Under the pieces are notes generated by a model. The model had not been told where the DNA came from and ran no database searches. It saw only the letters and a program-made list of their open reading frames with translations. A stretch of 64,000 bases of DNA from contig NZ_JAUOTP010000003.1 in NCBI RefSeq assembly GCF_030546695.1, forward strand, positions 496,001 through 560,000, read 5' to 3'. A program made the position numbers and the translations under genes. This document shows, in pieces, positions 1,184-50,543 of this stretch; within the stretch, counting starts at the first letter, position 1; each line of letters opens with the position of its first letter. The stretch is from Sphingomonas natans (GTDB lineage Bacteria > Pseudomonadota > Alphaproteobacteria > Sphingomonadales > Sphingomonadaceae).

Positions 1184-1207
1184 TAATGCATCGCTCCACT
1201 GGTATTT
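1184..1207 (-). promoter_or_regulatory. Putative operator copy 1 (AAATAC-N12-GCATTA)
   Basis: Read on the minus strand this site is AAATAC, 12 bases, GCATTA, matching 11 of 12 positions of the shared consensus RAAYGC-N12-GCRTTM seen at six other places in this window. It sits 70 bases before the SDR start at 1277 and about 190 bases before the oxidoreductase start at 997. The regulator is unknown. Confidence 0.4.
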
Positions 1208-1276
1208 CATCGGACGCCTATACGGACCGCCCCGGTTGGAGCAGATCATGGCCGTGCGAAGACAAGCAGGGACGAT

Positions 1277-2044
1277 ATGGACATCTCGAACGGATCCGTA
1301 CTGATCAGTGGCGGCGCAGGTGGCTTCGGCGGGGCGACCGCGCGGCGGCTGGCTGCGCTCGGCGCGAAAGTGGTTCTGGCAGATCTCGCAGACGAGCGAG
1401 GTGCCGAGCTCGCGGCGGAAATCGGCGGCCTTTATGTGCAGACCGACATCATGGACGAGACGTCCATCCAGGCCGCCATTGATGCGGCGATTAGCCTTGC
1501 ACCGCTTCGAGCGGCGGTGATCGCCCATGGCGGACCACCGCCCCCCGACAAAGGCGGCCGCACGATCGGACGCGATGGGAGCCGTGTCAGCATCGCCCAT
1601 TTCGCTCACCTCGTCAGCGTCTACCTGGTCCAGGCCTATGCCGTCAGCAGCATGGCGGCACAGGCCATGGCGACCAATGAGCCGCTCGCGTCCGGGCAGC
1701 GCGGGGTGATCGTCAACACCGCGTCCATCGCCGGGTTCGAAGGTCAGCCCGGTCAGGTGCCGTATGGGGCGGCCAAAGGCGGGATCATCTCCATGGCGCT
1801 CAATCTGGCGCGAGACCTCGCGCCGCTTGGCGTGCGCTCCATGGCGATCGCGCCCGGGACGTTTCTGACCTACGCCTATGCGCAGATGGGCGCCAACAAG
1901 GCCCAGGAAACCTTCGGCCCCATGGTGCTCAATCCCAAGCGCATGGGTGAACCAGAAGAATATGCGATGCTGGCACAGCAGATCATCGAGAATGATTTCC
2001 TCAATGGCACGACTATTCGCCTGGACGGTGGACAACGCTTTTAG
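1277..2044 (+). CDS. SDR family oxidoreductase, type II 3-hydroxyacyl-CoA dehydrogenase-like
   Basis: This 255-residue classical SDR has the cofactor motif GGAGGFG near residue 12, a Ser (about 150) in NTASIAG and the catalytic Tyr163-x3-Lys167 in VPYGAAKGG. The long loop after residue 85 (GGPPPPDKGGR) and overall pattern resemble the HSD17B10-type 3-hydroxyacyl-CoA or hydroxysteroid dehydrogenases, which act on secondary alcohols with NAD. The start is supported by AGGGACGAT just upstream. A cupin gene follows after 68 bases on the same strand, so the two are probably co-transcribed. Substrate is inferred only at class level. Confidence 0.8.
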   Translation: MDISNGSVLISGGAGGFGGATARRLAALGAKVVLADLADERGAELAAEIGGLYVQTDIMDETSIQAAIDAAISLAPLRAAVIAHGGPPPPDKGGRTIGRDGSRVSIAHFAHLVSVYLVQAYAVSSMAAQAMATNEPLASGQRGVIVNTASIAGFEGQPGQVPYGAAKGGIISMALNLARDLAPLGVRSMAIAPGTFLTYAYAQMGANKAQETFGPMVLNPKRMGEPEEYAMLAQQIIENDFLNGTTIRLDGGQRF

Positions 2045-2112
2045 CGGCCCCTCCCCTCACGCAAGCGATACTCTCAGGATGGCGAACCATCCGATTTCCA
2101 AGGAGCGGAAGC

Positions 2113-2631
2113 ATGGCTGAAGAGGCAGAGAAAAAGAGCTTCACCATCTATCGGGCAAAAGATGCGCCGACCTTGATGGAGTCGGGACATATGGCGATCG
2201 CGCCGATCAGCGCCGAGCACCGCGCCGGTGTGATGAAGGCCGTCGAGGCTGGGTACACGAAGGGCGATGTCGTTCGCGTCCTCGTCGATCTGCCGGGCTT
2301 CAGCCTGACGCACGCATGGCTCAAGAAGCACTATCCGCTCGCGCTGCACACGCACGATTCCGACTGTCTGTACTATATCGTGGCGGGGTCGCTGAGGATG
2401 GGAACGGAAGACCTTGGCGCCCAGGACAGCTTTTTCGTGCCCGCCGGTGTCCCGTACACCTACCGGCCGGGCCCGGACGGCGTCGAAGTCCTGGAATTCC
2501 GCCACGCGACCCAATTCGACTTCGTCAATCTGTCCAAGACCGCCACGTTCTGGGAAAAGGCGACGCAAATCGTGAAGGACAATGTCGCCGATTGGGAGGT
2601 CGCCACGCCGCCCTCGCAAATGGCGCGCTGA
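2113..2631 (+). CDS. Cupin-domain protein
   Basis: The 172-residue protein contains one cupin beta-barrel. The first metal-binding motif is visible as HTHDSDCLYYIVAGSL (His79, His81), followed by a second motif region with FVPAGVPYTYRPG around residue 115-128. Cupins bind a divalent metal and may be dioxygenases, isomerases, lyases or binding proteins. There is no DNA-binding domain. The ribosome site AAGGAGCGG precedes the ATG. It lies downstream of an SDR gene and ends just before a GC hairpin, so it closes that short operon. Reaction unknown. Confidence 0.7.
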   Translation: MAEEAEKKSFTIYRAKDAPTLMESGHMAIAPISAEHRAGVMKAVEAGYTKGDVVRVLVDLPGFSLTHAWLKKHYPLALHTHDSDCLYYIVAGSLRMGTEDLGAQDSFFVPAGVPYTYRPGPDGVEVLEFRHATQFDFVNLSKTATFWEKATQIVKDNVADWEVATPPSQMAR

Positions 2632-2637
2632 GGCGAC

Positions 2638-2656
2638 GCCGCCGGGCGCCGGCGGC
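2638..2656. terminator. GC hairpin between convergent genes
   Basis: Perfect 8-base arms GCCGCCGG (2638-2645) and CCGGCGGC (2649-2656) enclose a 3-base loop. It lies just after the cupin stop and just beyond the stop of the convergent gene at 2680. There is no T-tract, so a terminator is plausible but not proven. Confidence 0.4.
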
Positions 2657-2679
2657 CCTCACGCATCGGCGACCGGCAA

Positions 2680-3060: not shown

Positions 3061-3272
3061 CTTACGCTCGCCATTCCGATGTCTTGGACCGCGCCGGGTG
3101 ACCGGATTCAGACCCGGAGTGCGGCTTGGGACGGCGCTGCAGGCCGTGTCAATCAAGCGGCGGCCCGGACGCCTTGGACAGGCTCACTTACCGCCCGCAC
3201 GATGGCGAAGGCCCTGTATCTTGCGCTGCCAGCCCCAAAGGCGGCAGACGCCTCGGCGCGAAGGGCGAGGAT

Positions 3273-5907: not shown

Positions 5908-5985
5908 TCACACTCCGTCATCACAATCCGGCTGCCGTTGCGCCGGCCTCAGATCGCGGCGTTCGGACAGGGAACGCCAGCCCCG

Positions 5986-7636: not shown

Positions 7637-9844
7637 TCAGGCGCGGCTGCGCGGCAGCCCTAGGCGCTTTTCGGCCACCATGCTGCGAAGCACTTCGCTC
7701 GTTCCGCCGTAGATCGACGTTGCGGTGGAGTGTCGGTAGCCCTTCTCGACGAGCCCGAGGCCGCTATTGCCCCGAACGAGCGAGGCCGGCGCGGCGAGGT
7801 CGAGCAGATCGGCCGAGTCTTCGATAAAGGCCTGGGTGGTGAAGACCTTTGAAGCCGGTCCCTGCGCCTGATCCGGCTTCTGGGCGAGACGCGACCAGAG
7901 CGCCCGCGCGCTCATGCCTTCGCTGATACTGGCATGAGCGTAGACGCGGGCAAGGCGCGCCAGGGTCGCCGGATGTTCGATCAGGGGAACGCCATCGCGG
8001 ATTTCATCGCGTGCCCACGTCGCAACCGCGTCGATCATATCGCGCAGCTGATAGTGGTAGAAGCTCCCCCCCTGCTCCATCGACAGCGCCGCCGCCATCA
8101 TCCGGACGCCGCCATTGACGTCGCCGAGCCGGTAGCGATCGGGAATGCGCACATCTTCGTAGAAGGTCGCGTTCGTGCGTTCGTCCATGAAGGTATGGAC
8201 CGGCTGGATCTCGATGCCCGGATGATCCAGCGGCACCAGAAACAATGTCAGGCCCTTGTGCTTGGGCGCCTCCGGGTCGGTCCGCGCCAGCAGCAGGACG
8301 TAACTGGAAAGCTCGGCACCGGACGTGAACATCTTCTGTCCGTTGACGATCCACTCCTCGCCGTCGCGTACGGCGCGCGTCTTCGCCGCGAACACGTCCG
8401 AACCACCCGAGGGTTCGGTGAATCCCAGACACGACGTCACCTCGCCGCGGGCGAAGGGCAGCAGGACCTCCTCCTGAAGCTCGGGCGTACCGGCCTTCTG
8501 CACCAGGACACCGGCCATTCCGGTCACGCCGCGGGCAAGGCCGGCGTAGCCCACTTCCTGCCAGACGGCGGAGCAGGCCCGGGTGGTATCGGCATTCGCG
8601 CCCCGTCCGCCCCAGTGCTCCGGCCAGTCCGGGAAAAGCAGGCCCGCCTGGCCCATCGTCCGGTGCACGGTCCAATCGTGGGCTTCGAAATTCTGCTCGC
8701 CGAAGTTTTCGCGGGCGGGATCGAGCAACGGCTCCATGATCGTGCGCATTTCCGCTGCGAGCGCATCATCCTGGTCGGGCGCCTCGAAGTCGACCTCGAC
8801 CGTCCCGACATCAGGCAGGCAGGTGTCCTGGCCCAGAAAGAGCCGCCTGCCGCCTAGCGTCAGCTCGGCTTCCGGATCACCGAGCGCCAGCCCCCAGGAC
8901 TTTGCGCGACGATGATAGAGCTGAATGTCATATTCGTTGCTCAACCCATAGCCGCCGAACGTGTGGATGGCGTGGGCCACCGCGTTCGTGGCCGTCCGGC
9001 TCGCCCACCAGAACAGCATCGAGATGGACGCTCCGGCATCGGACTTGCGATCATGGATGCCGCGCAGGATCCACCACAGGAACATTTCCGCGCCGTCCGC
9101 ATCGATGACGTCGACAGCGAGCGGATGTCCGATCCCCTGATAGGATCCGATCGGCTGGCCGAACGCGACGCGCTCGCAGGCATATTCAGAGGCCAGCCTG
9201 AGCGCCTCGCGGGACAGCCCGATCAGCGCGGCCGAGGTCAGCAGCTTCCACTCCTCAATGCCGGCCTGCCAGATCGTCGCCGCATCGGCATTGCCCGACA
9301 GAATATGCCGCTGGCCCGCTCCTGGAGTGAAGATGCCCACAGCGCTGCCGCCAAGCGTGTTCGGCGCTTCGGGCTTAGCCGCCGGAACTTCGATGGCAAG
9401 CTCTGTGCCGTCGAACGTCAGCACGGCCGTCGCGACCGCAGCGCCCGGCACGAACTGCGGCTTGCCGGGCTCGACCGGGCGGAGCGCGAGCGTCAGCAGC
9501 GTCTCGCCGTCGCGGACCTTGGCGATCCACTCCCGCGCGAGGTCGCCGCCAACCTCACCCAATATCCGCAAGGCCGTGATCGTCTCGGCGAGCGGTGCCG
9601 GGGCAATCCGCCTCCCCGCTTCGGCCATCAGCAGGCATGCGTCGAACAATCCCAGGCCACCGCCACCGAGATCCGCCGACAGTCGCAGAAAAGGCGCTTC
9701 AAGCTGGACAAGGTCCTTCCAGAGCACGGGATCGAAACCGACCGGTTCGGCGGCGCGGACGCGCGCCATCGTCGCCTCGTCCGTAAAGAAGCGTTCGAAC
9801 ATGTCCTGCAGTGGTTTGCTGTCGTCGGGCAGGTTGAGATTCAT
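7637..9844 (-). CDS. Double-length (fused alpha/beta) acyl-CoA dehydrogenase
   Basis: At 735 residues this is about twice the usual acyl-CoA dehydrogenase. The N-terminal half (about 1-355) carries a poorly conserved FAD-binding part and a C-terminal helical part with ERVAFGQPIGSYQGIGHPLA. The second half (about 370-735) has the complete signature: LGFTEPSGGSD, VNGQKMFTSGA and IYGGTSEVLR near the end. Fusion of an inactive-type and an active-type half is known from FadE34 of Mycobacterium tuberculosis, which corresponds to the alpha2-beta2 enzymes acting on bulky steroid-CoA side chains. It would desaturate an acyl-CoA and pass electrons to ETF (EtfBA at 28150-29822). The promoter region upstream contains an operator candidate. 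Confidence 0.88.
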   Translation of the reverse strand: MNLNLPDDSKPLQDMFERFFTDEATMARVRAAEPVGFDPVLWKDLVQLEAPFLRLSADLGGGGLGLFDACLLMAEAGRRIAPAPLAETITALRILGEVGGDLAREWIAKVRDGETLLTLALRPVEPGKPQFVPGAAVATAVLTFDGTELAIEVPAAKPEAPNTLGGSAVGIFTPGAGQRHILSGNADAATIWQAGIEEWKLLTSAALIGLSREALRLASEYACERVAFGQPIGSYQGIGHPLAVDVIDADGAEMFLWWILRGIHDRKSDAGASISMLFWWASRTATNAVAHAIHTFGGYGLSNEYDIQLYHRRAKSWGLALGDPEAELTLGGRRLFLGQDTCLPDVGTVEVDFEAPDQDDALAAEMRTIMEPLLDPARENFGEQNFEAHDWTVHRTMGQAGLLFPDWPEHWGGRGANADTTRACSAVWQEVGYAGLARGVTGMAGVLVQKAGTPELQEEVLLPFARGEVTSCLGFTEPSGGSDVFAAKTRAVRDGEEWIVNGQKMFTSGAELSSYVLLLARTDPEAPKHKGLTLFLVPLDHPGIEIQPVHTFMDERTNATFYEDVRIPDRYRLGDVNGGVRMMAAALSMEQGGSFYHYQLRDMIDAVATWARDEIRDGVPLIEHPATLARLARVYAHASISEGMSARALWSRLAQKPDQAQGPASKVFTTQAFIEDSADLLDLAAPASLVRGNSGLGLVEKGYRHSTATSIYGGTSEVLRSMVAEKRLGLPRSRA

Positions 9845-10147
9845 CGAACGGCCTCAAGCTATGGAGAAAGGTTCCGCTCGAAACGGGCGGTCGACCGCAG
9901 CCGTCGTAATCGGGTGCGTGCGCGCGACCAAGCGTGTCGGCCCTTCCGGCCGTGCAAAACCCGCACTCTTCGTCCCGACGATGCTTGGCGCGTTTCCAAC
10001 GAAATGGCAATTGCCAAGCGCATTGTCCTTCGTCACTAGTTCGGGAGGGCAAACGGTGCGGCTGTCGAACGCTGCGGCTTCCGTTCAGGACCAGACCGCA
10101 GGTGAAGCGCCGCCGCGCAGATGACGGCCGACATGAATGGAGATGAT
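9845..10147. promoter_or_regulatory. Divergent promoter region
   Basis: These 303 bases separate the fused acyl-CoA dehydrogenase (minus) from the fused E1 gene (plus). No gene is supported. It holds operator candidate 2 (10002-10025), an overlapping perfect palindrome TGGCAATTGCCA (10005-10016) and a GAACG / CGTTC inverted repeat (10067-10071 and 10082-10086). Confidence 0.5.
10002..10025 (+). promoter_or_regulatory. Putative operator copy 2 (AAATGG-N12-GCATTG)
   Basis: Ten of 12 half-site positions match RAAYGC-N12-GCRTTM. It overlaps the 12-base palindrome TGGCAATTGCCA. It lies 123 bases before the E1 start at 10148 and 158 bases before the acyl-CoA dehydrogenase start at 9844. Confidence 0.4.
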
Positions 10148-12196
10148 ATGCTCGACGAGCTGGAGCGCACGAACCTCGGGATCGATCCCGCGGTGCTTCT
10201 GGACATCTACCGCCAGATGTCGCGCATCCACGAAGTCGACAAGGCCATCCGGTCCGGCTTGTCGGCGGGCCGCTTCCAGTTCACCTATTGGCCGATGACG
10301 GGCCAGGAAGCGATCCCCGCGACCCTGGCCACGCTGACCGATGCCAGCGACTATATGGTCACGATCTATCGCGGCATCCACGACCAGGTCGCCAAGGGCG
10401 TCCCCTTGAAGGGGCTGTTCGCCGAGGCGATGTCGCGCAAGGACGGTCTCAACAAGGGCAAGGGCGGATCGCCGCACATCTCCGATCCGACGAGCGGATC
10501 GATGCTGACGACGGCCATCGTCGGTGCCGGCGCGCCCATCGCCAACGGACTGGCGCTGGCGGCGAAGATGCGGGGCGAAGGCCGTGTGACGATCGTCAAT
10601 TTCGGTGACGGGGCGACCAGCATCGGGGCGGTACACGAGGCCATGAATCTGGCCGGCGCCTGGAAGCTGCCGATCATCTTCATGTGCCAGAACAACCAGA
10701 TCGGCGAATATACCAAGATCCCGGACTATACGGCGAGCCCCGACTTTGCCGGCCGTGCGGCAGGCTATGGCTTCCGGGGCGTCAAGGTCGATGCCAACGA
10801 TCCGATCGCGTTTCACGCCGCCATGAAGGAGATCGTCGAGGACGTGCGGGCCGGAAAGGGTCCGGTGTTCGTCGAGGCGGTCACGCTGCGGCTTGGCACG
10901 CATGCGGGCTTCGCTCCGAACGAGCTCCTGACCAAGGACGAGCTGGCGGCGGGTCGCGCAAACTGGCCGGTTCCGAAGACTCGCGCCTTCCTGCTGGAAA
11001 CCAAGATCGCGACCGAGGAGGAACTGGCCGCGATCGACGGTGCTGCCGCAGCGGAAGTGGCCGAGGCCGTCGCCTTTGCGACCGCGAGCGAACCGATCAC
11101 CGAAGAGGATATGTTCAACGACGTCTATGACGATCCGTCGGTCATCCCGATGCGCGGCGTCTACTCCTTCCGAGAGGAGGAGGCGCCGGTCACCGGCGAG
11201 ACGAAGCTGATGGCGATGTACGAGGCGATCATCAGCGCACAGGACCTCGCGCTGGAGGCCGATCCCGGCGTTTTTCTCCTGGGCGAGGACATTGGCGATC
11301 CGCCCGGCGGCGTCTTCAAGACCACGGCCGGCCTCCAGACGAAATGGGGCAAGGAGCGGGTCAGGCCGACCCCGATTGCGGAGCAGGCGATCATCGGTGC
11401 GGCGACGGGTGCCGCTTTGGTCGGAATGCGTCCCGTGGCCGAACTGATGTTCGCGGATTTCATCGGCGTGACGATGGACCAGATCGCGAACCACGCCGCC
11501 AAGCAGCGTTACATGTCGGGTAGCGCTACCAACGTGCCGATGACGATGCGGATCCTGGTCGCGGGCGGACTGGGCGGCTTCGGTGCGCAGCACAGCCAGT
11601 CTCTCGAGGCGTGGCTGCTCCACGTTCCAGGTCTCAAGATCGCTTATCCATCCACCACGCTCGATGCGCGCGGTCTGCTGGCCAGCTGCATTTTCGACGA
11701 GGATCCCTGCGTCCACTTCGAATCGATGGCGATGGTCTTCGGCGCGCCGAAGCAGGAAGTCCCGATCGGGGACTATCGCATTCCTCTGGGCGTCGCCAAG
11801 GTGCGCCGCGAAGGCACCGACATCACTATCATTTCGTTCGGTTGGCAGGTGAACCAGTGCCTGGCGGCGGCGGAAGAGCTGGCCAAGGACGGTGTCAGCG
11901 CCGAGGTGATCGATCTTCGCTCGCTGATGCCGCTCGACTATCACCGCGTGCTGGACTCCGTGAGGAAGACGCGCCGGGCTCTGGTCGTCCATGCCGCGAC
12001 CGAATTCTGCGGTCTGGGTTCGGAGATCGCCGCGACGATTAACGAGGAACTTTTCCCGATCCTGAAGGCGCCAGCGTCGCGATTTGGTGCTTATTATACG
12101 CCAATCAGCTTCTCGGCCGCGATCGAGGCGAAGCAGATGCCGAATACCGGATCGATCGTCGCGCGTGTGCGCGAGGTCTTGAAGGACCGCGGCTGA
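10148..12196 (+). CDS. Fused 2-oxoacid dehydrogenase E1 (alpha-beta) component
   Basis: The 682-residue protein joins an E1 alpha domain (about 1-340; thiamine-diphosphate motif NFGDGATSIGAVHEAMN with CQNN) to an E1 beta transketolase domain (about 350-680; LLGEDIG, IAEQAIIGAATGAALVG, IDLRSLMPLD). E1 decarboxylates a 2-oxo acid and transfers the acyl group to a lipoyl domain. No E2 or E3 gene is adjacent; the only lipoyl carriers in the window are the free proteins at 17524 and 50270. Of three in-frame ATGs (10121, 10133, 10148) the last has GGAG five bases upstream and is chosen. A split E1 pair occurs at 17763-19773, so there are two systems. Substrate is unknown. Confidence 0.85.
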   Translation: MLDELERTNLGIDPAVLLDIYRQMSRIHEVDKAIRSGLSAGRFQFTYWPMTGQEAIPATLATLTDASDYMVTIYRGIHDQVAKGVPLKGLFAEAMSRKDGLNKGKGGSPHISDPTSGSMLTTAIVGAGAPIANGLALAAKMRGEGRVTIVNFGDGATSIGAVHEAMNLAGAWKLPIIFMCQNNQIGEYTKIPDYTASPDFAGRAAGYGFRGVKVDANDPIAFHAAMKEIVEDVRAGKGPVFVEAVTLRLGTHAGFAPNELLTKDELAAGRANWPVPKTRAFLLETKIATEEELAAIDGAAAAEVAEAVAFATASEPITEEDMFNDVYDDPSVIPMRGVYSFREEEAPVTGETKLMAMYEAIISAQDLALEADPGVFLLGEDIGDPPGGVFKTTAGLQTKWGKERVRPTPIAEQAIIGAATGAALVGMRPVAELMFADFIGVTMDQIANHAAKQRYMSGSATNVPMTMRILVAGGLGGFGAQHSQSLEAWLLHVPGLKIAYPSTTLDARGLLASCIFDEDPCVHFESMAMVFGAPKQEVPIGDYRIPLGVAKVRREGTDITIISFGWQVNQCLAAAEELAKDGVSAEVIDLRSLMPLDYHRVLDSVRKTRRALVVHAATEFCGLGSEIAATINEELFPILKAPASRFGAYYTPISFSAAIEAKQMPNTGSIVARVREVLKDRG

Positions 12197-12276: not shown

Positions 12277-12802
12277 ATGCGATGCGATGCCGCTGCTCGT
12301 CGAGAGGTCCTCATCGACGCCGGCGCGCACTGCTTCGCCGAGGGCGGATATCTCGTCCCGCTCGGCGAGATCGCGGCGCGGGCCGGCGTCGAGCGGGGAA
12401 CGCTGTATCGGAATTTCCGGGATCGCTTGAGTTGGCGGCCATCCTCAAGCGCAATGTCGAAGCACTCGCCGCGCGGGCCGATGCCTGCCGTTTGAGGACA
12501 TGCTGATCACGCTGGCCGAAGGTGCAGGCCCACTTGCACTCTTCGGCGATCCTGGCGATGGGGATAGCGCCGAGGCCACACGTCGCGGCACCAGCGTGAC
12601 CGGTCTCGTTACCGCGCTGGGTCCGATCGTGGACAAGGCGCATCGGCGCGGAGAATTGCGCGGGGACGCCAACGGCTGGACCGTGCTTGTCGAGCTGCAT
12701 ATGATCTGGCAGCGACCTCTCGGTGGCTGGACGCCCGGCGCAAGGCGCCAGACTATTGCAGAGGCGCTCGATCTGGTGATGCGGGGCCTGACGCCTCGCT
12801 GA
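12277..12802 (+). pseudogene. TetR-family regulator with two frameshifts
   Basis: Three frames are needed to read one TetR protein of about 175 residues. Frame 1 gives the helix-turn-helix (PLGEIAARAGVERGTLYRNF, from 12277). After about 12425 the sense continues one base back as LELAAILKRNVEALAARADA. After about 12490 it shifts again to FEDMLITLAEGAGPLALF and on to a normal C-terminal domain ending at 12802. Each break equals the loss of one base within an Arg codon (CG before CTT, and CG before TTT). Either the gene is inactive or both are sequencing errors at C runs. It lies downstream of the fused E1 gene and could once have regulated it. Confidence 0.75.
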
Positions 12803-15229: not shown

Positions 15230-16666
15230 CTATTCGGCCGCCGCCGCGATTTCGGACACGGGTTCGGGCGGCATCGTAGGCCCGAAACCGATATCGACGA
15301 TCGGGCCTTCGAAGCCGGAATTGACGATTGCCGACGCCTTGGCCAGCCGCTCGGGCTCAATACCCGCCAGATAGCCGTCGATGAGGCGCTGATAATTGCT
15401 GATCATGCCCTCGACCTTGTGGGAAAGGCGCATGAACTCGAAGCCGCCGGCATGGAGGCCCAGTTGCTGCAGCGGCAGATTGTCATAGTCCTGCCGCGGG
15501 ATCGGCGGGAACTCCTTGCTGTCATGTGGCAGAAAGACCGGACGTACCGGCTCGCGCTCCTCATCCTCCGGCAGGAAGGCGAGCGACCAGATCTCGAAGA
15601 GGCAGGTTTCCTCGGTGAGCGGCCGGATCCGGTAGGACGACATGGCGCCGAACATCGGCAACAGGAAATAATGGGGAAAGAGGAAATCGACCGCGGTGAA
15701 GAAGTGGTTGGCCGCCACCTCATTCAGATCGAACATCGGGAGCCCGCGAGCGCGCCCCTGATCCGTGATCTCCTGGCGCAGACGCGTATAGAAGACGCCA
15801 GCCGCGCTCGGCACATCCTCCGGCAGGTCCATGTCGCGCAGCTGCCGCGCGATGTCCACTTCGCTAGGATGGACCATACCGGCCATGCCTTCGCTGAGAC
15901 GCTCCATGAATTGGATCATCTGCTCGCGAAACTTGTCGACGGTCATCACGGACGGCGGAACCGGATTATTGCTCTCCGGCCCGTACAGGCTGGTTTCCGG
16001 CGACGACAGAAGATTGAGCTGTGGATGGGTCCGCATCGTATGATAGCCTTCCATGAAGGCCTCCATCGCGAGCTTCCAGTTCGTCGGCAGCTCTGTCGCG
16101 TACCACCATTCCATCTTGAGCTGGTCAACGTTGCGCGCCGAGAGCCGCTCGGCCACCGGCCCTAATGAGTCCAGCAAGGACGGCGCGCTATCGTCAAAGT
16201 TGATGAAGGCGCTGCCGCCCCACAGCTCGACGCGACACGGCTTCAGGTCGATCTCGGCCTTCGACAAGGTGTCCGGCGAGAACACCTTCTTGCCGTATAC
16301 GAAGGTGTTGACGCCCTCCATGTTCCATCGCCAGCCGTGGAACGGGCAGATGAAACCCGAATTCTTGCAATTGCCATGGCCGTTTGCCAGCTGGACGCCC
16401 CGGTGGCGACAGGCATTGTGAAAAGCCTTGATGCCGCCCTTGGTGTGGACGATGATGACGGACTTGTCGAGATTGCGATACTCGACATAGTCGCCGACCT
16501 CGGGAATTTCCTCAAGGCGCGCCGCCATCTGCCAGACGTGCGGCCACAGCTTCTCGCGCTCCAGCTCGAAGAACGCCTTATCGTAATAGCGCTTGGCCGG
16601 GATCTGCTCGGGATCGGTCACCTGCAGCGGGACAGCCTGCAGCAACGCCGTGTCTTGTGCCGTCAT
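15230..16666 (-). CDS. Rieske non-heme iron oxygenase, alpha subunit
   Basis: The 478-residue protein carries a Rieske [2Fe-2S] site Cys86-x-His88 and Cys107-x2-His110 (CRHRG, CPFHGW) and a mononuclear iron site in EGYHTMRTH (His209, His214). It would insert oxygen into a ring or C-H bond using electrons from a ferredoxin and reductase, which are not encoded in this window. No classical beta subunit is seen, although SnoaL-like proteins of the same fold are encoded at 13771 and 17019. TTG and ATG codons at 16678 and 16669 are less well placed than the ATG at 16666, which has GGAGG five bases upstream. It heads a minus-strand operon with SDR and SnoaL-like genes. Confidence 0.88.
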   Translation of the reverse strand: MTAQDTALLQAVPLQVTDPEQIPAKRYYDKAFFELEREKLWPHVWQMAARLEEIPEVGDYVEYRNLDKSVIIVHTKGGIKAFHNACRHRGVQLANGHGNCKNSGFICPFHGWRWNMEGVNTFVYGKKVFSPDTLSKAEIDLKPCRVELWGGSAFINFDDSAPSLLDSLGPVAERLSARNVDQLKMEWWYATELPTNWKLAMEAFMEGYHTMRTHPQLNLLSSPETSLYGPESNNPVPPSVMTVDKFREQMIQFMERLSEGMAGMVHPSEVDIARQLRDMDLPEDVPSAAGVFYTRLRQEITDQGRARGLPMFDLNEVAANHFFTAVDFLFPHYFLLPMFGAMSSYRIRPLTEETCLFEIWSLAFLPEDEEREPVRPVFLPHDSKEFPPIPRQDYDNLPLQQLGLHAGGFEFMRLSHKVEGMISNYQRLIDGYLAGIEPERLAKASAIVNSGFEGPIVDIGFGPTMPPEPVSEIAAAAE

Positions 16667-17018
16667 CATATCCTCCAAACCAGAAGCCTTGGCGCTGCTA
16701 CGCTCTTTCTCGGCCTACGCTTGCTCGTCCGACCGCCGGTGTTGAGCTCGGCATGCCGTCGGCAGCCACGATGCCGGCCTAGTTTGACGGTCAGAGCCCG
16801 ACAAGCGACGGCCGCAAAGATCACAGGCACGGTATTTTCGGACGCCGCCTCCAGCGACAGCGCACTGGAAAGACAACACCCATATGCATTAGCATATAAA
16901 ATAGTAGCGGCTCGGCAGCAAGAGCGGGGAAGCCGGGGCGATGCCCCGTCCTGCCCGCCGGGGCCCGCCTGCTGTTGGCAAACCCGCCATCGGCATCGTA
17001 ACGGAGGGGAGGCCTGCG
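16667..17018. promoter_or_regulatory. Divergent promoter region with AT-rich core
   Basis: No gene is supported in these 352 bases between the Rieske oxygenase (minus) and a SnoaL-like gene (plus). An AT-rich island at 16880-16905 contains the palindrome ATATGC-ATTA-GCATAT (16882-16897), overlapped by operator candidate 3 and followed by TATAAA (16895-16900), a possible -10 element. Confidence 0.5.
16868..16891 (+). promoter_or_regulatory. Putative operator copy 3 (GAAAGA-N12-GCATTA)
   Basis: The right half-site is exact and the left matches 4 of 6 positions of RAAYGC-N12-GCRTTM. It overlaps the palindrome ATATGC-N4-GCATAT. It lies 128 bases before the gene at 17019 and about 200 bases before the Rieske oxygenase start. 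Confidence 0.35.
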
Positions 17019-17489
17019 ATGGAAGCATTGACCGGTCTGGACAGGCTGTCGGCGCTCGAGGAGATCGCTCTCCTGAAGGCGCGCCGGGACAGGGCGGCAG
17101 ACACCAAGGACTGGACCCTTTACGAGGCACTGCACGCACCCGACCATCAGAGCTACAATGACGATTACGGCCATTGGACCAGCGCGGCCGAGATGATCCG
17201 GAATGTCCGCAGATCCATGGCCGGCCTGACCACGGCCCATCATTCGCACACCCCGGAGATCACGTTCGAGACGCAGACCACGGCGTCAGGCATCTGGGCT
17301 ATGAAAGGGCTGTCGGTCTGGCGGCAAGGCGAGGAAAGCCACTGGTTCCTCGCCTTCGGCCATTATTACGAGACCTATGAGCGACGGGACGGCACCTGGC
17401 TCTTCACCAGCCGCCGTCTGCGCTATCTCCATACCGTCCGATCGCCCGGAGCGATCTTTCCCCCGACCATCGCGCCGAATCCGGCGTGA
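17019..17489 (+). CDS. SnoaL-like NTF2-fold protein, paralogue of the 23444 gene
   Basis: The 156-residue protein starts with MEALTGLDRLSALEEIALLK and contains KARRDRAADTKDW, LHAPDHQS and the block HHSHTPEITF around residue 85, shared nearly unchanged with the protein at 23444. Such NTF2-fold proteins include ketosteroid-isomerase-like and dehydratase-like enzymes, and the beta subunits of Rieske dioxygenases. The frame is open to 16941, but the ATG at 17019 has GGAGGGGAGG upstream and aligns with the paralogue's start. It is divergent from the Rieske oxygenase and convergent with the lipoyl protein gene. Activity is not known. Confidence 0.78.
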   Translation: MEALTGLDRLSALEEIALLKARRDRAADTKDWTLYEALHAPDHQSYNDDYGHWTSAAEMIRNVRRSMAGLTTAHHSHTPEITFETQTTASGIWAMKGLSVWRQGEESHWFLAFGHYYETYERRDGTWLFTSRRLRYLHTVRSPGAIFPPTIAPNPA

Positions 17490-20761: not shown

Positions 20762-20785
20762 TAATGCTCCTGAGATCAAGCATTT
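20762..20785 (-). promoter_or_regulatory. Putative operator copy 4 (AAATGC-N12-GCATTA)
   Basis: On the minus strand both half-sites match RAAYGC-N12-GCRTTM completely. It is 107 bases upstream of the aldolase start codon at 20655, the same distance as copy 7 from its gene. Confidence 0.55.
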
Positions 20786-20976: not shown

Positions 20977-21000
20977 GAACGCACATGCCCTATTGCATTA
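20977..21000 (+). promoter_or_regulatory. Putative operator copy 5 (GAACGC-N12-GCATTA)
   Basis: A full match to the shared consensus, ending 63 bases before the TonB receptor start. The G before it gives GGAAC, which also resembles the -35 element of EcfG-type stress promoters, an alternative reading. Confidence 0.55.
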
Positions 21001-30831: not shown

Positions 30832-31725
30832 TCACACGTCGAGTGAGCCGACGCCTTCCAGCTGTTCGAGATAGTGGCTGGTCGAGTCAGCGGTGAAGCT
30901 CAGGGTCAGCTTGGTCGCGCCGGCATCGAACAGGCCGCGAATGATCTCCGCCGCCTTTTCTGGCGCGCCGACCGGATCGACACGCACCTGCGGCGGCAGC
31001 ACGAAATCCAGCGGCCGCTCACGGGCCTCGTAGGCGGGACTGGCCTTCGCCGTTGCGATCATGACCTTCATCTCTTCCGTGCTGAGGCCGAAGGGCATCC
31101 AGCCGTCGCCAAGTTCGACCGCGCGCTGGATGGAAAGCTTGGTGCGCCCCCCGATCCAGAGAGGAACGTGGCTCTGCACAGCGCAAGGATCGATCGTAAG
31201 CCCAGCAAAGTCGTAATAGGGCCCGTGATATTCGGGCTCGGGCTGGCCGAGCGAGGCGCGCAGCGCGCGAAGGGCATCATCACCACGCGCGCCGCGTTCG
31301 GTGAACTCGGCCCCGCCGATGCCGAGAAGGTCGAATTCCTCCTTGAGTGTTCCCACGCCCAGGCCGAGGACGAGGCGTCCTCCACTCACCGTGTCGAGCG
31401 TGCCGTAGCGCTTCGCGATCTCCAGGGGATGGTGATATCCAAGAACCAGGACGGCGGTTGTAAAACGAATGTTCGTGGTGATCGCTGCAAAATAGCCGAA
31501 CGTGGCGAGCGGATCATAATATCGCACGCCTCGACGCTGCGCTTCCGTGCTCGGCACGCCGATATGTTCGGCGCAGGAAACATGGTCGTATCCGAGACGA
31601 TCCGCGGCAGCGACGATATCGGCCACTTCCTTGAACGGGAGGGCGTAGGCCCATTCCTTCTCCGCAGAAGGCGTGATCGAAAGACTTGGGGCGTTAAATC
31701 CAAATCGGGAGAAGTCGGCTGTCAT
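30832..31725 (-). CDS. LLM-class (luciferase-like) flavin- or F420-dependent oxidoreductase
   Basis: The 297-residue TIM-barrel protein has RLGYDHVSCAEHIGVP, TTNIRFTTAVLVLGYHHPLEIAKRYGTLD as one conserved strand-helix block, GGRLVLGLGVGTLKEEFD and PLWIGGRT, typical of the LLM superfamily (TIGR03619-like). Members use FMNH2 or F420 for monooxygenation or hydride transfer. No flavin reductase is nearby. It is the last gene of the amidohydrolase-TetR-SDR operon, 54 bases after the SDR gene. Substrate unknown. Confidence 0.8.
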   Translation of the reverse strand: MTADFSRFGFNAPSLSITPSAEKEWAYALPFKEVADIVAAADRLGYDHVSCAEHIGVPSTEAQRRGVRYYDPLATFGYFAAITTNIRFTTAVLVLGYHHPLEIAKRYGTLDTVSGGRLVLGLGVGTLKEEFDLLGIGGAEFTERGARGDDALRALRASLGQPEPEYHGPYYDFAGLTIDPCAVQSHVPLWIGGRTKLSIQRAVELGDGWMPFGLSTEEMKVMIATAKASPAYEARERPLDFVLPPQVRVDPVGAPEKAAEIIRGLFDAGATKLTLSFTADSTSHYLEQLEGVGSLDV

Positions 31726-32597: not shown

Positions 32598-33362
32598 CTA
32601 AGAATGCTGTCGCGTACCGTGGATGCCCGTCGCCCCACAATCGACCGGCGCGGATATCGCCTCGGCGGTGCCTGCAGTGGCCGACCGACCCGTCGACTGG
32701 CGCACGAATTCCACGAAGCGGGTCGCGATAATGTCGATCATCAACGGCTCGTTGGCGTCGAGACGATCCCATGCCGCACGATTGCTCTGGTCGAGCAGTT
32801 CATAGATCAGCAGCCACGCCTCGAGCCATCGCCGCTTTTGGCTCTCACGGGTGCGGTCTATGGCAAATGCCGGGATTGAGCGGCCCAGCCCTGCCACGAT
32901 GTCGGCGATGAAGGTCTGCGCGTGCCCGGTGAATTCCTGATGCTCCGCATTGGCCTGCGTGAACACCCGGAGCAATTGCCGGTTCGCCCTGTCGGTCGCA
33001 AAAATCTCGACAATCCATGCCCGGACCGCCGAATAGGAGCGGAAGTCGCCGTCCGCGATCCGCAGATAGACCGGGGTCGTCGACGCCGCGGCGCGCACGA
33101 ACAGTTCGCCCGCAATGGCAGCCTTGCCCGTGAAATGCCGGTAGACCGTCATGCGACTGGTGTCCGCAGCGGCCGCAATCTCTTCGATGGAAACCGGGAA
33201 ATATCCTTTTCCCCGAAACAGCTCGAGCGAGGCGGCAAGGATTTTCTCGCGATAGCCCTTGCGTCCACGCGGCTCTGGTGCGCCACAAGCAGACTGGTTG
33301 GAAGGAAACGGCGTTTCCGCCGCCTCCTCGCGCGCGTCCCAACTCGTGGCGGGCGCCCTCAT
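32598..33362 (-). CDS. TetR/AcrR-family transcriptional regulator
   Basis: The 254-residue protein has a 35-residue disordered N-terminus, then the TetR DNA-binding domain with helix-turn-helix SIEEIAAAADTSRMTVYRHF (about residues 58-77). A C-terminal ligand-binding domain runs from about 90 to 220. Its start overlaps the amidohydrolase stop by 4 bases, so it is expressed with that operon. The perfect palindrome GTTACA-CAC-TGTAAC at 35147, in the promoter of this operon, is a likely autoregulatory site. It might instead be the regulator for the RAAYGC-N12-GCRTTM sites, one of which is in the same promoter. Confidence 0.85.
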   Translation of the reverse strand: MRAPATSWDAREEAAETPFPSNQSACGAPEPRGRKGYREKILAASLELFRGKGYFPVSIEEIAAAADTSRMTVYRHFTGKAAIAGELFVRAAASTTPVYLRIADGDFRSYSAVRAWIVEIFATDRANRQLLRVFTQANAEHQEFTGHAQTFIADIVAGLGRSIPAFAIDRTRESQKRRWLEAWLLIYELLDQSNRAAWDRLDANEPLMIDIIATRFVEFVRQSTGRSATAGTAEAISAPVDCGATGIHGTRQHS

Positions 33363-35107
33363 TCGGCCGCCATCGCCAGAACCATGCTCTGCTCGGGCCC
33401 GATGAAGTCGCCCGGGAAGCGCCCCGTAAAGGCACCGTTGTCAAAGATCGGGACACCGTTGACGAGGGTCAGCCGCATCGGCGCGGGGGCCCGCGTGTAG
33501 CGGTAGGTTCGCCCGCCCTTGCCATCCAGCACATCCCAGATCTTCTCTTCCGGACGCCGCTCGATCTCGGCGAGGTTGAAGACCGCGATGTCGGCAACCT
33601 TGCCCTGCTCGATCAAGCCGCGATCGTTCAGACCAAAGAAATAGGCGAGCTTCCCGGTCATGACGTGCACCGCCTCCTCGATCGACAGAATGGCGCGATC
33701 GCGAACATATTCGGTCAGCAGCAGCACGTTGTCACCATTGCCGCAGAACATCTTGCCGTGCGCGCCGCCGTCGGAAACGTTGCCGACCGAGCGGCTGTCG
33801 CGAAACATCGCCAGCATCGCATCATCATCGTTCGGCAGGGATTGCTTGTGGACGACGGACTCGGCTCCGTTCTTGAAAACCCAATCTGCCAAGGCATCCG
33901 ACGGATGGGCGATACCCGACTGCTCGATATAATCCGCAAGGGTGATGCCGACCGGCCCCCACCCGGACTCGCTCTCCTTGAAGGTCAGCTTCGTGGAGTC
34001 GCGCAGGTAGGAGTGCGAGTAGGTATCCTGATCCCAGGCGACGCGCGCCCGCGCCAGCCAGTCGGGATCGGTCAGGAGCGCACTTTTCTCGTCCCACGTC
34101 TTGGCGTTGACGACCTCCTGCCAGACCGGATTTCCGTTCTGCGCAAACACCAGCGACCGCCCAAAATTGATGACGGAGGTCGGCGAGACATGATGATAGG
34201 CAGTCCAGATCTCGGCGCCACCTTCCGCCTTGAACTGCTCGTGCAGCAGGGCGGACGGCTTTCCGCCCTCAAGGGCGTATTTGAGGGTCGGCAGACCCAG
34301 CCAGTGCATCCGCGCGCCGGTTTCCTTCGCCATCCGTCCCAGCCGCTCGACCTGCTTGGGCCCGGTCATGTGGAAGAAATGATCGACGACAACCTGGAAG
34401 GTCGCGCCGTCATAGCGCGCGACCACCTCCAGCAGGGCGCGATATTCGGCATCGTCTGCCAGTTGCGAGGGGAGCGGTCGCTCAAACTTGTCATGGTCAA
34501 GCTGGTTGGAGGACAGGCCCAGGGCACCCGCGGCAAGCGCATCGTCGAGCAAGGCGCACATCTTCTGGATCTCGTCAGACGTTGCCGCGCGAGTCCACGC
34601 CTCCTGCCCCATCACATAGAGCCGCATGGGGATATGCCCGCAGAATGCGGCGAAGTTCACTGGAACCGTCACATTGCGCAGCATCGACGCCTTATACTCG
34701 CTCCAGGTTTCCCAGTCCCATGGCACATTCTTTTCCATCGGTTCTTCGGGGATGTCCTCGAAGAAATTGAAGATCTCGATGATGCTCTGTCGATCTTCGG
34801 GGTTCTTGGGCGCCGGCGCCATCGAGAATCCGCAATTGCCGTTGATGGAGGTCGTGATCCCGTAAGCCGGCAAAGGCTCCATGTTCGGTGCCCACCAGAC
34901 ACCCCCATCCCAGTGGTTGTGCGATTCGATGAATCCGGGTGTCACGTAGCAGCCGGTCGCATCGATCACGCGCTCGCCGACCGTGCTCGAAAGCGCCTGA
35001 CCGATTTCGGTGATCCGACCGCCACTGACTCGGACATCCGACGGATAGGCCGCCGCACCCGAACCATCGACGACGGTTCCACCTTTGATAAGCAAGCGAA
35101 AATTCAT
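33359..35107 (-). CDS. Amidohydrolase, N-acyl-D-amino-acid deacylase family (COG3653)
   Basis: The 582-residue protein has the family entry LLIKGGTVVDGSG, the metal-binding HxH in ESHNHWDGG (about residue 66-68), and the Cys-containing NGNCGFSMAPAP loop. The end GKVADIAVF is the typical beta-sandwich closure. Named members deacylate N-acyl-D-amino acids with zinc, but many are mis-annotated cyclic amidases or lactonases. The ATG at 35107 has GGGAGAG upstream; the frame stays open across the promoter without reason. It heads the operon amidohydrolase-TetR-SDR-LLM. A distant paralogue is encoded at 37986. Real substrate unknown. Confidence 0.83.
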   Translation of the reverse strand: MNFRLLIKGGTVVDGSGAAAYPSDVRVSGGRITEIGQALSSTVGERVIDATGCYVTPGFIESHNHWDGGVWWAPNMEPLPAYGITTSINGNCGFSMAPAPKNPEDRQSIIEIFNFFEDIPEEPMEKNVPWDWETWSEYKASMLRNVTVPVNFAAFCGHIPMRLYVMGQEAWTRAATSDEIQKMCALLDDALAAGALGLSSNQLDHDKFERPLPSQLADDAEYRALLEVVARYDGATFQVVVDHFFHMTGPKQVERLGRMAKETGARMHWLGLPTLKYALEGGKPSALLHEQFKAEGGAEIWTAYHHVSPTSVINFGRSLVFAQNGNPVWQEVVNAKTWDEKSALLTDPDWLARARVAWDQDTYSHSYLRDSTKLTFKESESGWGPVGITLADYIEQSGIAHPSDALADWVFKNGAESVVHKQSLPNDDDAMLAMFRDSRSVGNVSDGGAHGKMFCGNGDNVLLLTEYVRDRAILSIEEAVHVMTGKLAYFFGLNDRGLIEQGKVADIAVFNLAEIERRPEEKIWDVLDGKGGRTYRYTRAPAPMRLTLVNGVPIFDNGAFTGRFPGDFIGPEQSMVLAMAAE

Positions 35108-35146
35108 GGCAACTCTCCCATCGCCGTTTGGCTTCGAGCCTAAATT

Positions 35147-35161
35147 GTTACACACTGTAAC
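35147..35161. promoter_or_regulatory. TetR-type palindromic operator candidate
   Basis: Perfect inverted repeat GTTACA-CAC-TGTAAC, 40 bases upstream of the amidohydrolase start. Arms and 3-base spacing are typical of TetR-family sites, and a TetR gene is second in the operon. Confidence 0.55.
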
Positions 35162-35207
35162 GATACACGATCGCTCGGTAAAGCCATCCCACGGACTTGC
35201 GAAGATA

Positions 35208-35231
35208 GAACGCATATGGTGCATTGCGTTC
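35208..35231. promoter_or_regulatory. Putative operator copy 6 (GAACGC-N12-GCGTTC)
   Basis: The only perfectly symmetric copy of the shared split palindrome; with the flanking bases the arms extend to AGAACGCA and TGCGTTCT. It lies 101 bases upstream of the amidohydrolase start and 156 bases upstream of the VOC gene start, so it could serve both. Confidence 0.6.
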
Positions 35232-46518: not shown

Positions 46519-46596
46519 GAAGCGGATCCGCTGCGGGGAAGCCAGGCTGGCGGCATCGTCATTTGCCGGAGACGGTCGCCTGAGGCGCATGGCGCA

Positions 46597-48238: not shown

Positions 48239-48435
48239 CGCCCCGCTCACACTGCCGCGTGGCGCCTGCCGCGCCCTGATCAGGCCTGCGATTTCCGGCG
48301 TCTGCGACCGCCAATCATCGCCCCAACGATCCTCTGACCGTCGCTTCGCACGGCCGAGACTTGTACGCTCGAAACACCGATGACGGTGGGCGCACGAATG
48401 GCTCGCCTCCTCTCGCGCAGACCACAGAGGTATTG

Positions 48436-50109
48436 ATGAGCAGTTTCGACGAGACCCAGGATTTCGTGGTGGTGGGCAGCGGCGGCGGCTCGATGTGCGC
48501 GGCCCTGGTGATGCGCTCGGCCGGCAAGTCGGTCCTGATCCTGGAGAAAACCGACCTCATCGGCGGCACGACCGCGCGCTCCGGTGGGGTGATGTGGATA
48601 CCCAACAATCCTTTCATGAAGGCAGCGGGCGTCCCGGACAGTCTTGAGCAAGCCTCCACCTATCTCGATCATGTCGTCGGCGACCATAACGACACGCCAG
48701 GGGCCTCGCGCGCGCGACGTCGAGCCTATCTCATCCAGGGTCCGCGCATGTTGGACTTCCTGATCGGCAAAGGCCTCAAATTCTCGCGGATCGCGCAGTG
48801 GCCGGACTATTATGACGAGGCGCCCGGAAGCTCCGTGCCCGGACGTACCGTCGTCGCCGATCTGTTCGACGTCAATCGGCTCGGCGATGCCAAGTCCCTC
48901 CTGCGTCCGAACTTCCTGAATCTGCCGGCACCGCTCGAAGACGTGATGAAGCTGCCGCACGTGAAAAAGAGCTGGGCCGCCAAGAAGGCGCTGGCGCGGA
49001 TGGGCGTGCGCGCGCTCGTCGCCAAGGTGACCGGCAAGAAATATGTCACCGCCGGCGCGGCCTTGCAAGGTCAGATGTTTCTCGCGGCGCGGACCGCTGG
49101 CGTCGATCTTCGCGTCAATTCCGCGGTCAGCCAATTGATCGTGGAAGACGACGCGGTGACGGGCGTCGTGACCGAGAAGGACGGCAAGCCTTGGCGGATC
49201 GGCGCGCGGCTGGGCGTGCTCGTGAACGCGGGCGGCTTCGCGCTGAACCAGCAGATGCGCGACCAATATATTCCGGGCAGCTCGACCAAGCATACGAGCG
49301 TGATCGAGTCCGATACGGGCGAGATGATCCTCGAAATGACGCGCGCAGGTGCCGCCCTCGCGCAGATGGATGCGACGATCGGCAGTCCGCTCTCATTGCC
49401 GCCGGGCGGCGAGGAGTGGCCCATCAAGCCGGGCGCGCAGAATGTCGCGGCCGCGCCCCACGCCATTCTGGTCGACCAGTCGGGCGTCCGCTATCTCAAC
49501 GAAGGCGGTTCCTACACCGAATTCTGCCAGCGCATGGTGGAACGCGACAAGGAAGTGCCGGCGCTGCCGAGCTACGTCGTCTTCGACAGCGATGCGATGG
49601 CGAGCACCATGATCGCCGGTACGCTGCCGGGCGCCAGGAAACCCGACCCATGGTATGAGCAGGGATATCTGAAGAAAGCCGACACGATCGATGCTTTGGC
49701 GGGTCTGCTCGCCATCGACCCGGCGGTGCTGCGCAAGACGGTCGATCGCTTCAACGGCTTCGTCGCAGCGAACAAGGACGACGACTTCAAGCGTGGCGCG
49801 CGCGCTTATGACCGTTGGCTCGGCGACCCTTTCCACAAGCCGAGCGAGACATTGGGGACAATCGGCAAGGCCCCCTTCTATGCCATTCCCGTCATTCCCG
49901 GCGACGTCGGAACGATGGGCGGGGTGGTGACGGACGAGCAGGCGCGCGTGCTTCGCGAAGATGGCAGCCCCATCGCGCGTCTCTATGCGACCGGGGTCTC
50001 GACCGCGTCGGTGATGGGCCGCACCAGCCCCGGGTCGGGCGTCAATATCGGCCCGTCCTTCGTCTGGGGCTTCGTTGCCGCCAATCACGCCCTCACGGTC
50101 GCAGGCTGA
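48436..50109 (+). CDS. KstD-like FAD-dependent dehydrogenase 2
   Basis: The 557-residue paralogue of the 23955 protein keeps GSGGGSMCAAL, SGGVMWIPNNPFMKAAG, WPDYYDE and the LNEGGSY Tyr, so the FAD domain and two of the expected catalytic Tyr positions are intact. In the C-terminal motif the Tyr is missing: it reads TSPGSG (Ser531) where the other copy has SYPGAG. This Tyr assists enolisation of the 3-ketone in Rhodococcus KstD1. The enzyme may thus act on another substrate or reaction. TTGATGAGC start at 48436 follows AGAGG. The next gene is a free lipoyl protein. Confidence 0.82.
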   Translation: MSSFDETQDFVVVGSGGGSMCAALVMRSAGKSVLILEKTDLIGGTTARSGGVMWIPNNPFMKAAGVPDSLEQASTYLDHVVGDHNDTPGASRARRRAYLIQGPRMLDFLIGKGLKFSRIAQWPDYYDEAPGSSVPGRTVVADLFDVNRLGDAKSLLRPNFLNLPAPLEDVMKLPHVKKSWAAKKALARMGVRALVAKVTGKKYVTAGAALQGQMFLAARTAGVDLRVNSAVSQLIVEDDAVTGVVTEKDGKPWRIGARLGVLVNAGGFALNQQMRDQYIPGSSTKHTSVIESDTGEMILEMTRAGAALAQMDATIGSPLSLPPGGEEWPIKPGAQNVAAAPHAILVDQSGVRYLNEGGSYTEFCQRMVERDKEVPALPSYVVFDSDAMASTMIAGTLPGARKPDPWYEQGYLKKADTIDALAGLLAIDPAVLRKTVDRFNGFVAANKDDDFKRGARAYDRWLGDPFHKPSETLGTIGKAPFYAIPVIPGDVGTMGGVVTDEQARVLREDGSPIARLYATGVSTASVMGRTSPGSGVNIGPSFVWGFVAANHALTVAG

Positions 50110-50269
50110 GCCGCAGGCCGGTTTCTATCTCTCGGCACCGGCCGCGCATCGCCCCGGCGGATTCGCGGCGGTGCGCTTGCCCTGCCCATCCGGGCGGTGC
50201 CAAAATCCATCACGAGCTTCAGGACGCGCCCGATCGAAGGCCGTCCCCCACACGGAAGGCGATACGTCC

Positions 50270-50500
50270 ATGGCAACCGAGATCCTGCTCCCCAAGATCG
50301 GCTTTTCGATGACGGAAGGCATCCTGGCGGAATGGCTCGTCGAGGAGGGCGCCGCGGTCACCGAGGGGCAGCCCCTGTTCACGATCGAGAGCGACAAATC
50401 CACCAACGAGGTCGAGGCGCCGGCGTCCGGTATCCTGCGGATCAGCGGCAAGGCCGGCGAGACCTTCGACGTTGGCGCCGTCATCGGACTCATCGAGTAA
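50270..50500 (+). CDS. Stand-alone lipoyl-domain protein, second copy
   Basis: This 76-residue protein is one lipoyl hairpin domain, with the predicted lipoylated Lys43 in IESDKSTNEVEA and glycines at VEEGAAVTEGQ and EAPASGILR. No E2 catalytic domain, peripheral-subunit-binding domain or E3 gene is adjacent. No E1 is nearby either; both E1 systems are 30-40 kb away, though the fused E1 at 10148 lacks a partner. GGAAGGCGA precedes the start. It lies between the KstD-like gene and the BVMO operon. A carrier for the fused E1 is a reasonable guess. Confidence 0.85.
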   Translation: MATEILLPKIGFSMTEGILAEWLVEEGAAVTEGQPLFTIESDKSTNEVEAPASGILRISGKAGETFDVGAVIGLIE

Positions 50501-50519
50501 GCCGCTTCGCCCCGCCGAT

Positions 50520-50543
50520 GAATGCCTAGGTGGCATTGCATTA
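50520..50543 (+). promoter_or_regulatory. Putative operator copy 7 (GAATGC-N12-GCATTA)
   Basis: A full match to RAAYGC-N12-GCRTTM, ending 107 bases before the first BVMO start and 20 bases after the lipoyl protein stop. An AATGCC / GGCATT palindrome (50521-50526, 50532-50537) overlaps its left half. Confidence 0.55.

What the first reader, a model, noticed from the sequence alone, without database searches (positions are those of the whole stretch)
1184..50543. A shared split palindrome marks six promoter regions: candidate single regulon
By eye I find RAAYGC-N12-GCRTTM at 1184-1207 (AAATAC/GCATTA, minus), 10002-10025 (AAATGG/GCATTG), 16868-16891 (GAAAGA/GCATTA), 20762-20785 (AAATGC/GCATTA, minus), 20977-21000 (GAACGC/GCATTA), 35208-35231 (GAACGC/GCGTTC, perfect) and 50520-50543 (GAATGC/GCATTA). 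All seven fall in intergenic promoter regions, with the same 12-base spacing. Two copies lie exactly 107 bases from their start codons (20655 and 50650). The AT-rich half-site is rare in such GC-rich DNA. The sites precede the SDR, fused E1/acyl-CoA dehydrogenase, Rieske, aldolase-E1, TonB receptor, amidohydrolase/VOC and BVMO units, so most of the window may respond to one signal. The regulator is not identified. I looked mainly at intergenic DNA and built the consensus from these same sites, so its significance needs a genome-wide scan.
Basis: partly seen in the sequence, partly recalled or inferred. Interest (0 to 1): 0.85.

Follow-up and report, generated by a model that had tools for sequence, protein, structure and literature searches.

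The report
Shared operator of a catabolic regulon
The repeated palindrome is a real, conserved DNA signal that marks promoters across a roughly 180-kilobase island of degradation genes, and its most likely reader is a TetR-type protein encoded just outside the window.

Summary
Genome G207 gave the same top dyad (15 against 0.15). A matrix trained only on G207 finds six of the seven reader sites at score 14 or more and nothing else in the window (0.5 expected from shuffles); 16868 scores 9.0 and cannot be told from chance. Genome-wide, 12 of 18 near-matches lie in C7:393-571 kb, so the window is part of a larger regulon. The motif precedes orthologues of the same genes in other alphaproteobacteria. 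The likely regulator is a TetR protein at C7:565433-566272, 5.4 kb past the window: its orthologues are rare in the family (5 of 397 genomes), often lie in the motif clusters and keep one recognition segment in 19 of 20 rows. Other regulators are not excluded. Coenzyme F420 genes seem to belong to the regulon. No binding has been measured.

The parts
1184..1207 (-). operator-like palindrome between divergent genes 182-1012(-) and SDR 1277-2044(+)
   Evidence: score 16.8 with the G207-only matrix
10002..10025 (+). operator-like palindrome between the fused acyl-CoA dehydrogenase 7637-9844(-) and E1 gene 10121-12196(+)
   Evidence: score 14.4; a weak site (13.5) precedes the dehydrogenase orthologue in L033
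16868..16891 (+). weak, doubtful copy between Rieske gene 15230-16678(-) and SnoaL-like gene 16941-17489(+)
   Evidence: score 9.0, not separable from chance; Rieske orthologues in L086, L088, L093, L099, L101 carry sites near their starts
20762..20785 (-). operator-like palindrome upstream of HpcH/HpaI aldolase 19861-20655(-)
   Evidence: score 18.5; two sites near the aldolase relative in L048
20977..21000 (+). operator-like palindrome upstream of TonB-dependent receptor 21064-23322(+); exact match to AAYGCA-N10-TGCRTT
   Evidence: score 22.6
35208..35231 (-). perfect palindrome about 100 bases before the likely start (near 35107) of amidohydrolase 33359-35224(-), head of a run of four minus-strand genes
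   Evidence: score 18.9; sites at amidohydrolase orthologues in L024, L028, L031
50520..50543 (+). operator-like palindrome upstream of Baeyer-Villiger-type monooxygenase 50650-52605(+)
   Evidence: score 23.0; sites near BVMO orthologues in L093 and L100
32598..33362 (-). TetR1, second gene behind the 35208 palindrome; rival regulator candidate
   Evidence: TetR_N; follows the amidohydrolase in 17 of 28 loci; recognition segment same in motif-free Nocardia
30832..31725 (-). F420-dependent LLM-class oxidoreductase, last gene of the run behind 35208
   Evidence: TIGR03619, 216.7 bits against cut-off 166.9

Best explanation
The palindrome (core AAYGCA-N10-TGCRTT, 22 bp) is the operator of one regulator of a catabolic island of about 180 kb (C7:393-571 kb), most likely a TetR-family repressor encoded at C7:565433-566272, 5.4 kb right of the window. 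Bound near gene starts, it would keep uptake (TonB receptors), oxygenases (Rieske, P450, BVMO) and CoA-dependent steps off until a pathway substrate or intermediate releases it. Half-site centres are 16 bp apart, about one and a half helical turns, so two dimers on opposite faces fit better than one dimer. Shown: the motif, its enrichment between genes, its confinement to the island, its conservation, and the co-occurrence of the TetR gene. Inferred: binding, repression, inducer and dimer-of-dimers mode. My odds: operator of a real regulon about 0.95; this TetR as its reader about 0.6 to 0.65.
For: Blind enumeration ranks the motif first in two genomes; cross-genome matrix recovers six of seven sites; 12 of 18 genome-wide near-matches in C7:393-571 kb against 5 for the reversed pattern genome-wide; 17 of 23 amidohydrolase-bearing genomes carry an exact motif, 2 of 23 the reversed one; sites at orthologous promoters. 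TetR: orthologues of 47% or more in 15 of 24 genomes, 8 of the 15 on a contig with an exact motif; 5 of 397 family genomes have it, and 3 of those 5 have three or more exact motifs against 4 of 392; G207, chosen by the TetR alone, has 20 of 36 near-matches within 143 kb around it; sites of 15.1 to 22.0 shortly before the TetR gene in 5 of 20 rows; GVATRTLY kept in 19 of 20 rows, and the exception (G401) has an altered palindrome beside the gene.
Against: No binding data. 15 of 20 TetR rows have no site of 13 or more just upstream, the own genome's included; there the nearest strong site precedes the SDR gene before it. G406 has three exact motifs without an orthologue. G160/G414 has the TetR but its exact motifs are on other contigs. 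G399 and G365 have the TetR but no exact motif. The altered G401 palindrome precedes an IclR gene as well as the TetR gene and was not found elsewhere in 104 kb. An IclR protein co-occurs in many of these genomes. Genomes were partly chosen by the amidohydrolase or the TetR, so the tests are not independent of ancestry.
Confidence: 0.65

Rival explanations
1. The reader of the motif is TetR1 (window 32598-33362), encoded behind the perfect palindrome and autoregulated.
For: It follows the amidohydrolase in 17 of 28 loci, the amidohydrolase promoter carries a site in the window and in L024, L028 and L031, and it is present in G207's cluster.
Against: The recognition segment SRMTFYRHF is the same in Nocardia loci L022 and L025, whose genomes have no exact motif, as in motif-bearing L032 and L131. 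No site lies directly before TetR1 in the 19 rows examined, though as a downstream operon gene that is expected.
Confidence: 0.1
2. The reader is the IclR protein at C7:481693-482733, alone or together with the TetR.
For: It lies in the island; a site of 20.2 is 87 bases before its orthologue in G365, and sites of 12.8 to 14.2 precede it in L111, L118, L037/L038; 16 of 21 genomes searched have a match.
Against: No match at E 1e-10 in G361, G405, G407, G409, G414, while G407 has many strong sites. Its helix segment is unchanged in G401 and Acidocella, where the regulon is not evident.
Confidence: 0.12
3. A regulator not examined here, encoded inside or outside the island, reads the motif.
For: Only TetR_N was searched in the own genome and only some island genes were scanned with Pfam. 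A LysR protein accompanies several other clusters.
Against: The LysR has no close orthologue here (best 38%); the TetR fits distribution, position and recognition segment better.
Confidence: 0.12
4. The sites are EcfG-type promoters or a chance collection.
For: The consensus was built from the sites themselves.
Against: De novo recovery in two genomes, cross-genome matrix, confinement to the island, AATGC-type symmetric sites in relatives.
Confidence: 0.01

Closest known systems
EdcR, TetR repressor of oestradiol degradation in Caenibius tardaugens (PMC8700777; passages)
   Same: TetR-type repressor of a sphingomonad catabolic cluster; proposed 24-bp palindromic operator at several promoters, released by substrate.
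   Different: Operator TnnCnnTACnAnTnGTAnnGnnA is unrelated; far fewer targets; orthology of the proteins was not tested here.
CprB and other dimer-of-dimers TetR proteins (PMC4150764; passages)
   Same: A 22-bp near-palindromic site bound by two dimers on opposite DNA faces, the geometry proposed here.
   Different: Streptomyces gamma-butyrolactone receptor class with another sequence; the geometry here is inferred from spacing only.
PheR, IclR repressor of phenanthrene uptake and catabolism in Sphingobium (PMC13273656; passages)
   Same: Sphingomonad repressor coupling uptake to catabolism.
   Different: IclR family; essential core GCAACG in a 44-bp protected region.
FadP, LiuQ and PsrA regulons of Proteobacteria (PMC5343134; passages)
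   Same: Regulons of CoA-linked catabolism inferred by the same comparative method; PsrA and FadP have many targets.
   Different: The passages give no motif to compare, and call FadP and LiuQ unique to Betaproteobacteria.

Membership tests
TetR-family regulator (protein at C7:565433-566272) | N-terminal TetR_N helix-turn-helix | tested here: met
   PF00440, 59.4 bits against cut-off 24; TetR-family PDB matches, best E 3e-15
TetR-family regulator (protein at C7:565433-566272) | binds a palindromic operator as dimers | not testable with these tools
   needs EMSA or footprinting
TetR-family regulator (protein at C7:565433-566272) | own promoter carries the operator (common, not universal) | tested here: inconclusive
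   5 of 20 rows have a site of 15 or more within 450 bases upstream; the own genome's is before the preceding SDR gene
single-regulator regulon | motif enriched in intergenic over coding DNA | tested here: met
   12 sites in 11.6 kb intergenic, 3 in the coding part
single-regulator regulon | motif conserved upstream of orthologous genes | tested here: met
   replicated de novo in G207
single-regulator regulon | target genes respond together to one signal | not testable with these tools
   needs RNA-seq
EdcR-type operator | TnnCnnTACnAnTnGTAnnGnnA | tested here: not met
   consensus AATGCA-N10-TGCATT lacks the central TAC/GTA (by comparison of the consensus)
EcfG promoter | GGAAC-N16/17-GTT | tested here: not met
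   none of the seven sites has both elements; 35208 has AGAAC-N16-GTT

The most novel reading that the evidence does not exclude
One substrate-sensing TetR repressor controls a catabolic island of about 180 kb in Sphingomonadales and Caulobacterales that carries its own coenzyme F420 supply, so that F420 is made on demand for this pathway. A review reports only trace F420 in two Alphaproteobacteria and suggests a niche-specific role (PMC8498797, passages); this would supply such a niche and its switch.
Probability: 0.35. Interest if true: 0.75.

Novelty: new member of a known kind. Interest (0 to 1): 0.6.

Why it matters
It offers a testable regulator-operator pair for a large catabolic gene set of unknown substrate that recurs in several alphaproteobacterial genera, so the regulator becomes a handle for finding the substrate. 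If the F420 link holds, it ties alphaproteobacterial F420 synthesis to a catabolic switch.

Tried and rejected
Spacing test of the half-sites: with up to 1 mismatch N12 was the commonest of 21 spacings in the island (17, next 15), with up to 2 mismatches there was no excess (121). A generic dyad count without a fixed word showed nothing at the relevant gap. The class-wide exact search (20 of 385 genomes) looks like background; in the family-wide one (92 of 397 genomes) the reversed pattern hit about 48 genomes by my reading of the rows. TetR1, IclR and LysR were each tested as regulators and disfavoured, not excluded. The altered G401 palindrome was sought in 104 kb of that genome and found only beside the TetR and IclR genes. 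Literature: five searches; I saw no description of this motif or regulator in the listings or in the passages read, which does not show that it is unpublished. Structure prediction was not used. The substrate was not identified; the enzyme types suggest a hydrophobic polycyclic or terpenoid compound, which is a guess.
Full report
WHAT IS THERE. The window is C7:496001-560000 of a 4.56-Mb genome in 13 contigs. It lies in a catabolic island with TonB receptors, a Rieske oxygenase, P450s, BVMO-like enzymes, 3-ketosteroid-dehydrogenase-like flavoproteins, amidohydrolases, SDRs, acyl-CoA dehydrogenases and TetR genes. The seven sites are present as described. Gene calls are my own, by ORF and third-position GC with the longest start, so starts are often too early.

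MORE THAN CHANCE. I fetched 200 kb of flanks and 200 kb of control DNA from contigs C5 and C6 and enumerated palindromic hexamer pairs at gaps 0-20 in intergenic DNA of C7:455-575 kb. AATGCA-N10-TGCATT ranked first: 12 sites with up to 2 mismatches against 0.14 expected, 3 in the coding part. C7:376-640 kb holds 20 such sites, the control 2. Genome-wide, AAYGCA-N10-TGCRTT with up to 1 mismatch occurs 18 times, the reversed pattern 5 times; 12 of the 18 lie in C7:393-571 kb (binomial 2e-13, for a stretch chosen after seeing the sites). The three exact matches are all in the island; six congeneric genomes have none. Two blunter tests gave little or nothing.

INDEPENDENT REPLICATION. G207 (one contig, 3.53 Mb, same family, another genus) was picked for carrying the TetR below. 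It has 36 near-matches (14 reversed); 20 of them, with all three exact ones, lie in C1:1115860-1258741. That stretch holds many relatives of the island's genes: the best 60 tblastn matches printed are 48-84% identical, several queries hitting one place. Blind enumeration there again ranks AATGCA-N10-TGCATT first, 15 against 0.15. Sixty shuffles average 0.5 (maximum 4); the 200-kb control has 3, the 264-kb island 22. Site 16868 scores 9.0, where about nine chance hits of 8 or more are expected.

CONSERVATION. A search with the amidohydrolase behind 35208 gave 28 loci, mostly sphingomonads and other alphaproteobacteria, some actinobacteria. I searched the genomes of 23 of these loci: 17 have an exact motif (31 forward matches), 2 have the reversed one. 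In the family, 92 of 397 genomes have a match. Sites of 13 or more precede, or overlap the predicted start of, orthologues of the Rieske oxygenase (L086, L088, L093, L099, L101; in L097 the site is inside a long predicted ORF), amidohydrolases (L024, L028, L031, L086), acyl-CoA dehydrogenases (L032, L048, L096), BVMO (L093, L100), an aldolase relative (L048), cyclase (L088, L092, L099) and TonB receptors. Nine of the 18 training sites came from such loci, so part of this list is circular; the exact-pattern counts are not.

THE REGULATOR. The favoured candidate is the TetR gene C7:565433-566272 (59.4 bits to TetR_N), behind an SDR gene with a site at 564565 near its start. Orthologues of 47% or more are in 15 of 24 genomes; in 8 of the 15 they share a contig with an exact motif (own genome). 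In the family 5 of 397 genomes have one (only up to seven candidates per genome were scored); 3 of the 5 have three or more exact motifs against 4 of 392 (Fisher 3e-5; 1e-3 without the own genome). One of the three, G160, has its motifs on other contigs, so the test is weaker than it looks. Sites of 15.1 to 22.0 lie shortly before the TetR gene in 5 of 20 rows (G403, G407, G409, G207, G361). G361's protein is only 38-39% identical yet keeps GVATRTLY, and its site scores 22.0; related genes are nearby too. GVATRTLY is kept in 19 of 20 rows; in G401 (35%) it reads RVSPRLVA, and palindromes of the form AATGAC-N10-GTCATT flank that gene, one of them also lying before an IclR gene. They were not found elsewhere in 104 kb of that genome.

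RIVAL REGULATORS. TetR1 in the window has the same recognition segment in Nocardia, whose genomes have no exact motif, as in motif-bearing genomes. The IclR protein has no match in G405, G407 and G409, which have the motif, but has sites upstream in G365 and weaker ones elsewhere, so it may be a target or partner. The LysR of other clusters has no close orthologue here (best 38%). Against the favoured TetR: G406 has three exact motifs without it, G399 and G365 have it without an exact motif, and 15 of 20 rows lack a strong site directly upstream.

MECHANISM. A TetR repressor bound near operon starts and released by a pathway compound is the simplest account; it is inferred. Half-site centres are 16 bp apart, so one dimer on one face fits poorly; CprB binds a 22-bp site as two dimers on opposite faces (PMC4150764, passages).

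F420. C7:439429-444591 encodes CofGH, NpdG, CofE and CofD, each above an NCBIfam equivalog cut-off; window gene 30832-31725, last in the run behind 35208, is an F420-dependent oxidoreductase above its cut-off. CofC was not looked for. G207, G407 and G408 have the four genes in their clusters; a site of 22.6 lies roughly 100-170 bases before the CofGH match in G407 and G207, whereas in G408 the nearest strong site is about 1 kb away. In the own genome the nearest upstream site, 446857 (17.0), precedes a CoA-ligase gene two genes before CofGH on the same strand; one operon is an inference. The window's oxidoreductase had no match in the other loci held.

KNOWN OR NEW. EdcR and PheR are functional parallels with other operators. 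Five searches of the paper library showed no description of this motif or regulator in what I saw. It is a new member of a known kind, a TetR-type catabolic regulon; its size and the F420 link are the unusual parts.

Noticed in passing
L004:3429-8591 (C7:439429-444591) and window 30832-31725: A coenzyme F420 biosynthesis set (CofGH, NpdG, CofE, CofD) in the island and an F420-dependent oxidoreductase in the window; the set recurs in G207, G407 and G408.
   Followed up: partly
window 12310-12423 (+): A TetR_N match (40 bits, 39 of 47 positions) in an open frame of only 89 codons: probably a gene remnant.
   Followed up: no
L054, L057, L059, L062 (and L055): In five Novosphingobium-type genomes an almost identical exact palindrome occurs; in four of them it precedes a 157-residue gene followed by a thiolase-like gene, outside any fetched cluster.
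   Followed up: no
L031:9949-9965: A perfect palindrome TGTTACAG-A-CTGTAACA 52 bases before the amidohydrolase match, unrelated to the motif; possibly an operator of TetR1.
   Followed up: no
window 20763 and 20978; L006:18265 and 18401: Sites in pairs 215 and 136 bases apart in two TonB-receptor intergenic regions.
   Followed up: no
L118:9943 and 10796: Altered palindromes AATGAC-N10-GTCATT flank the divergent TetR relative of G401 and lie before it and an IclR gene.
   Followed up: partly
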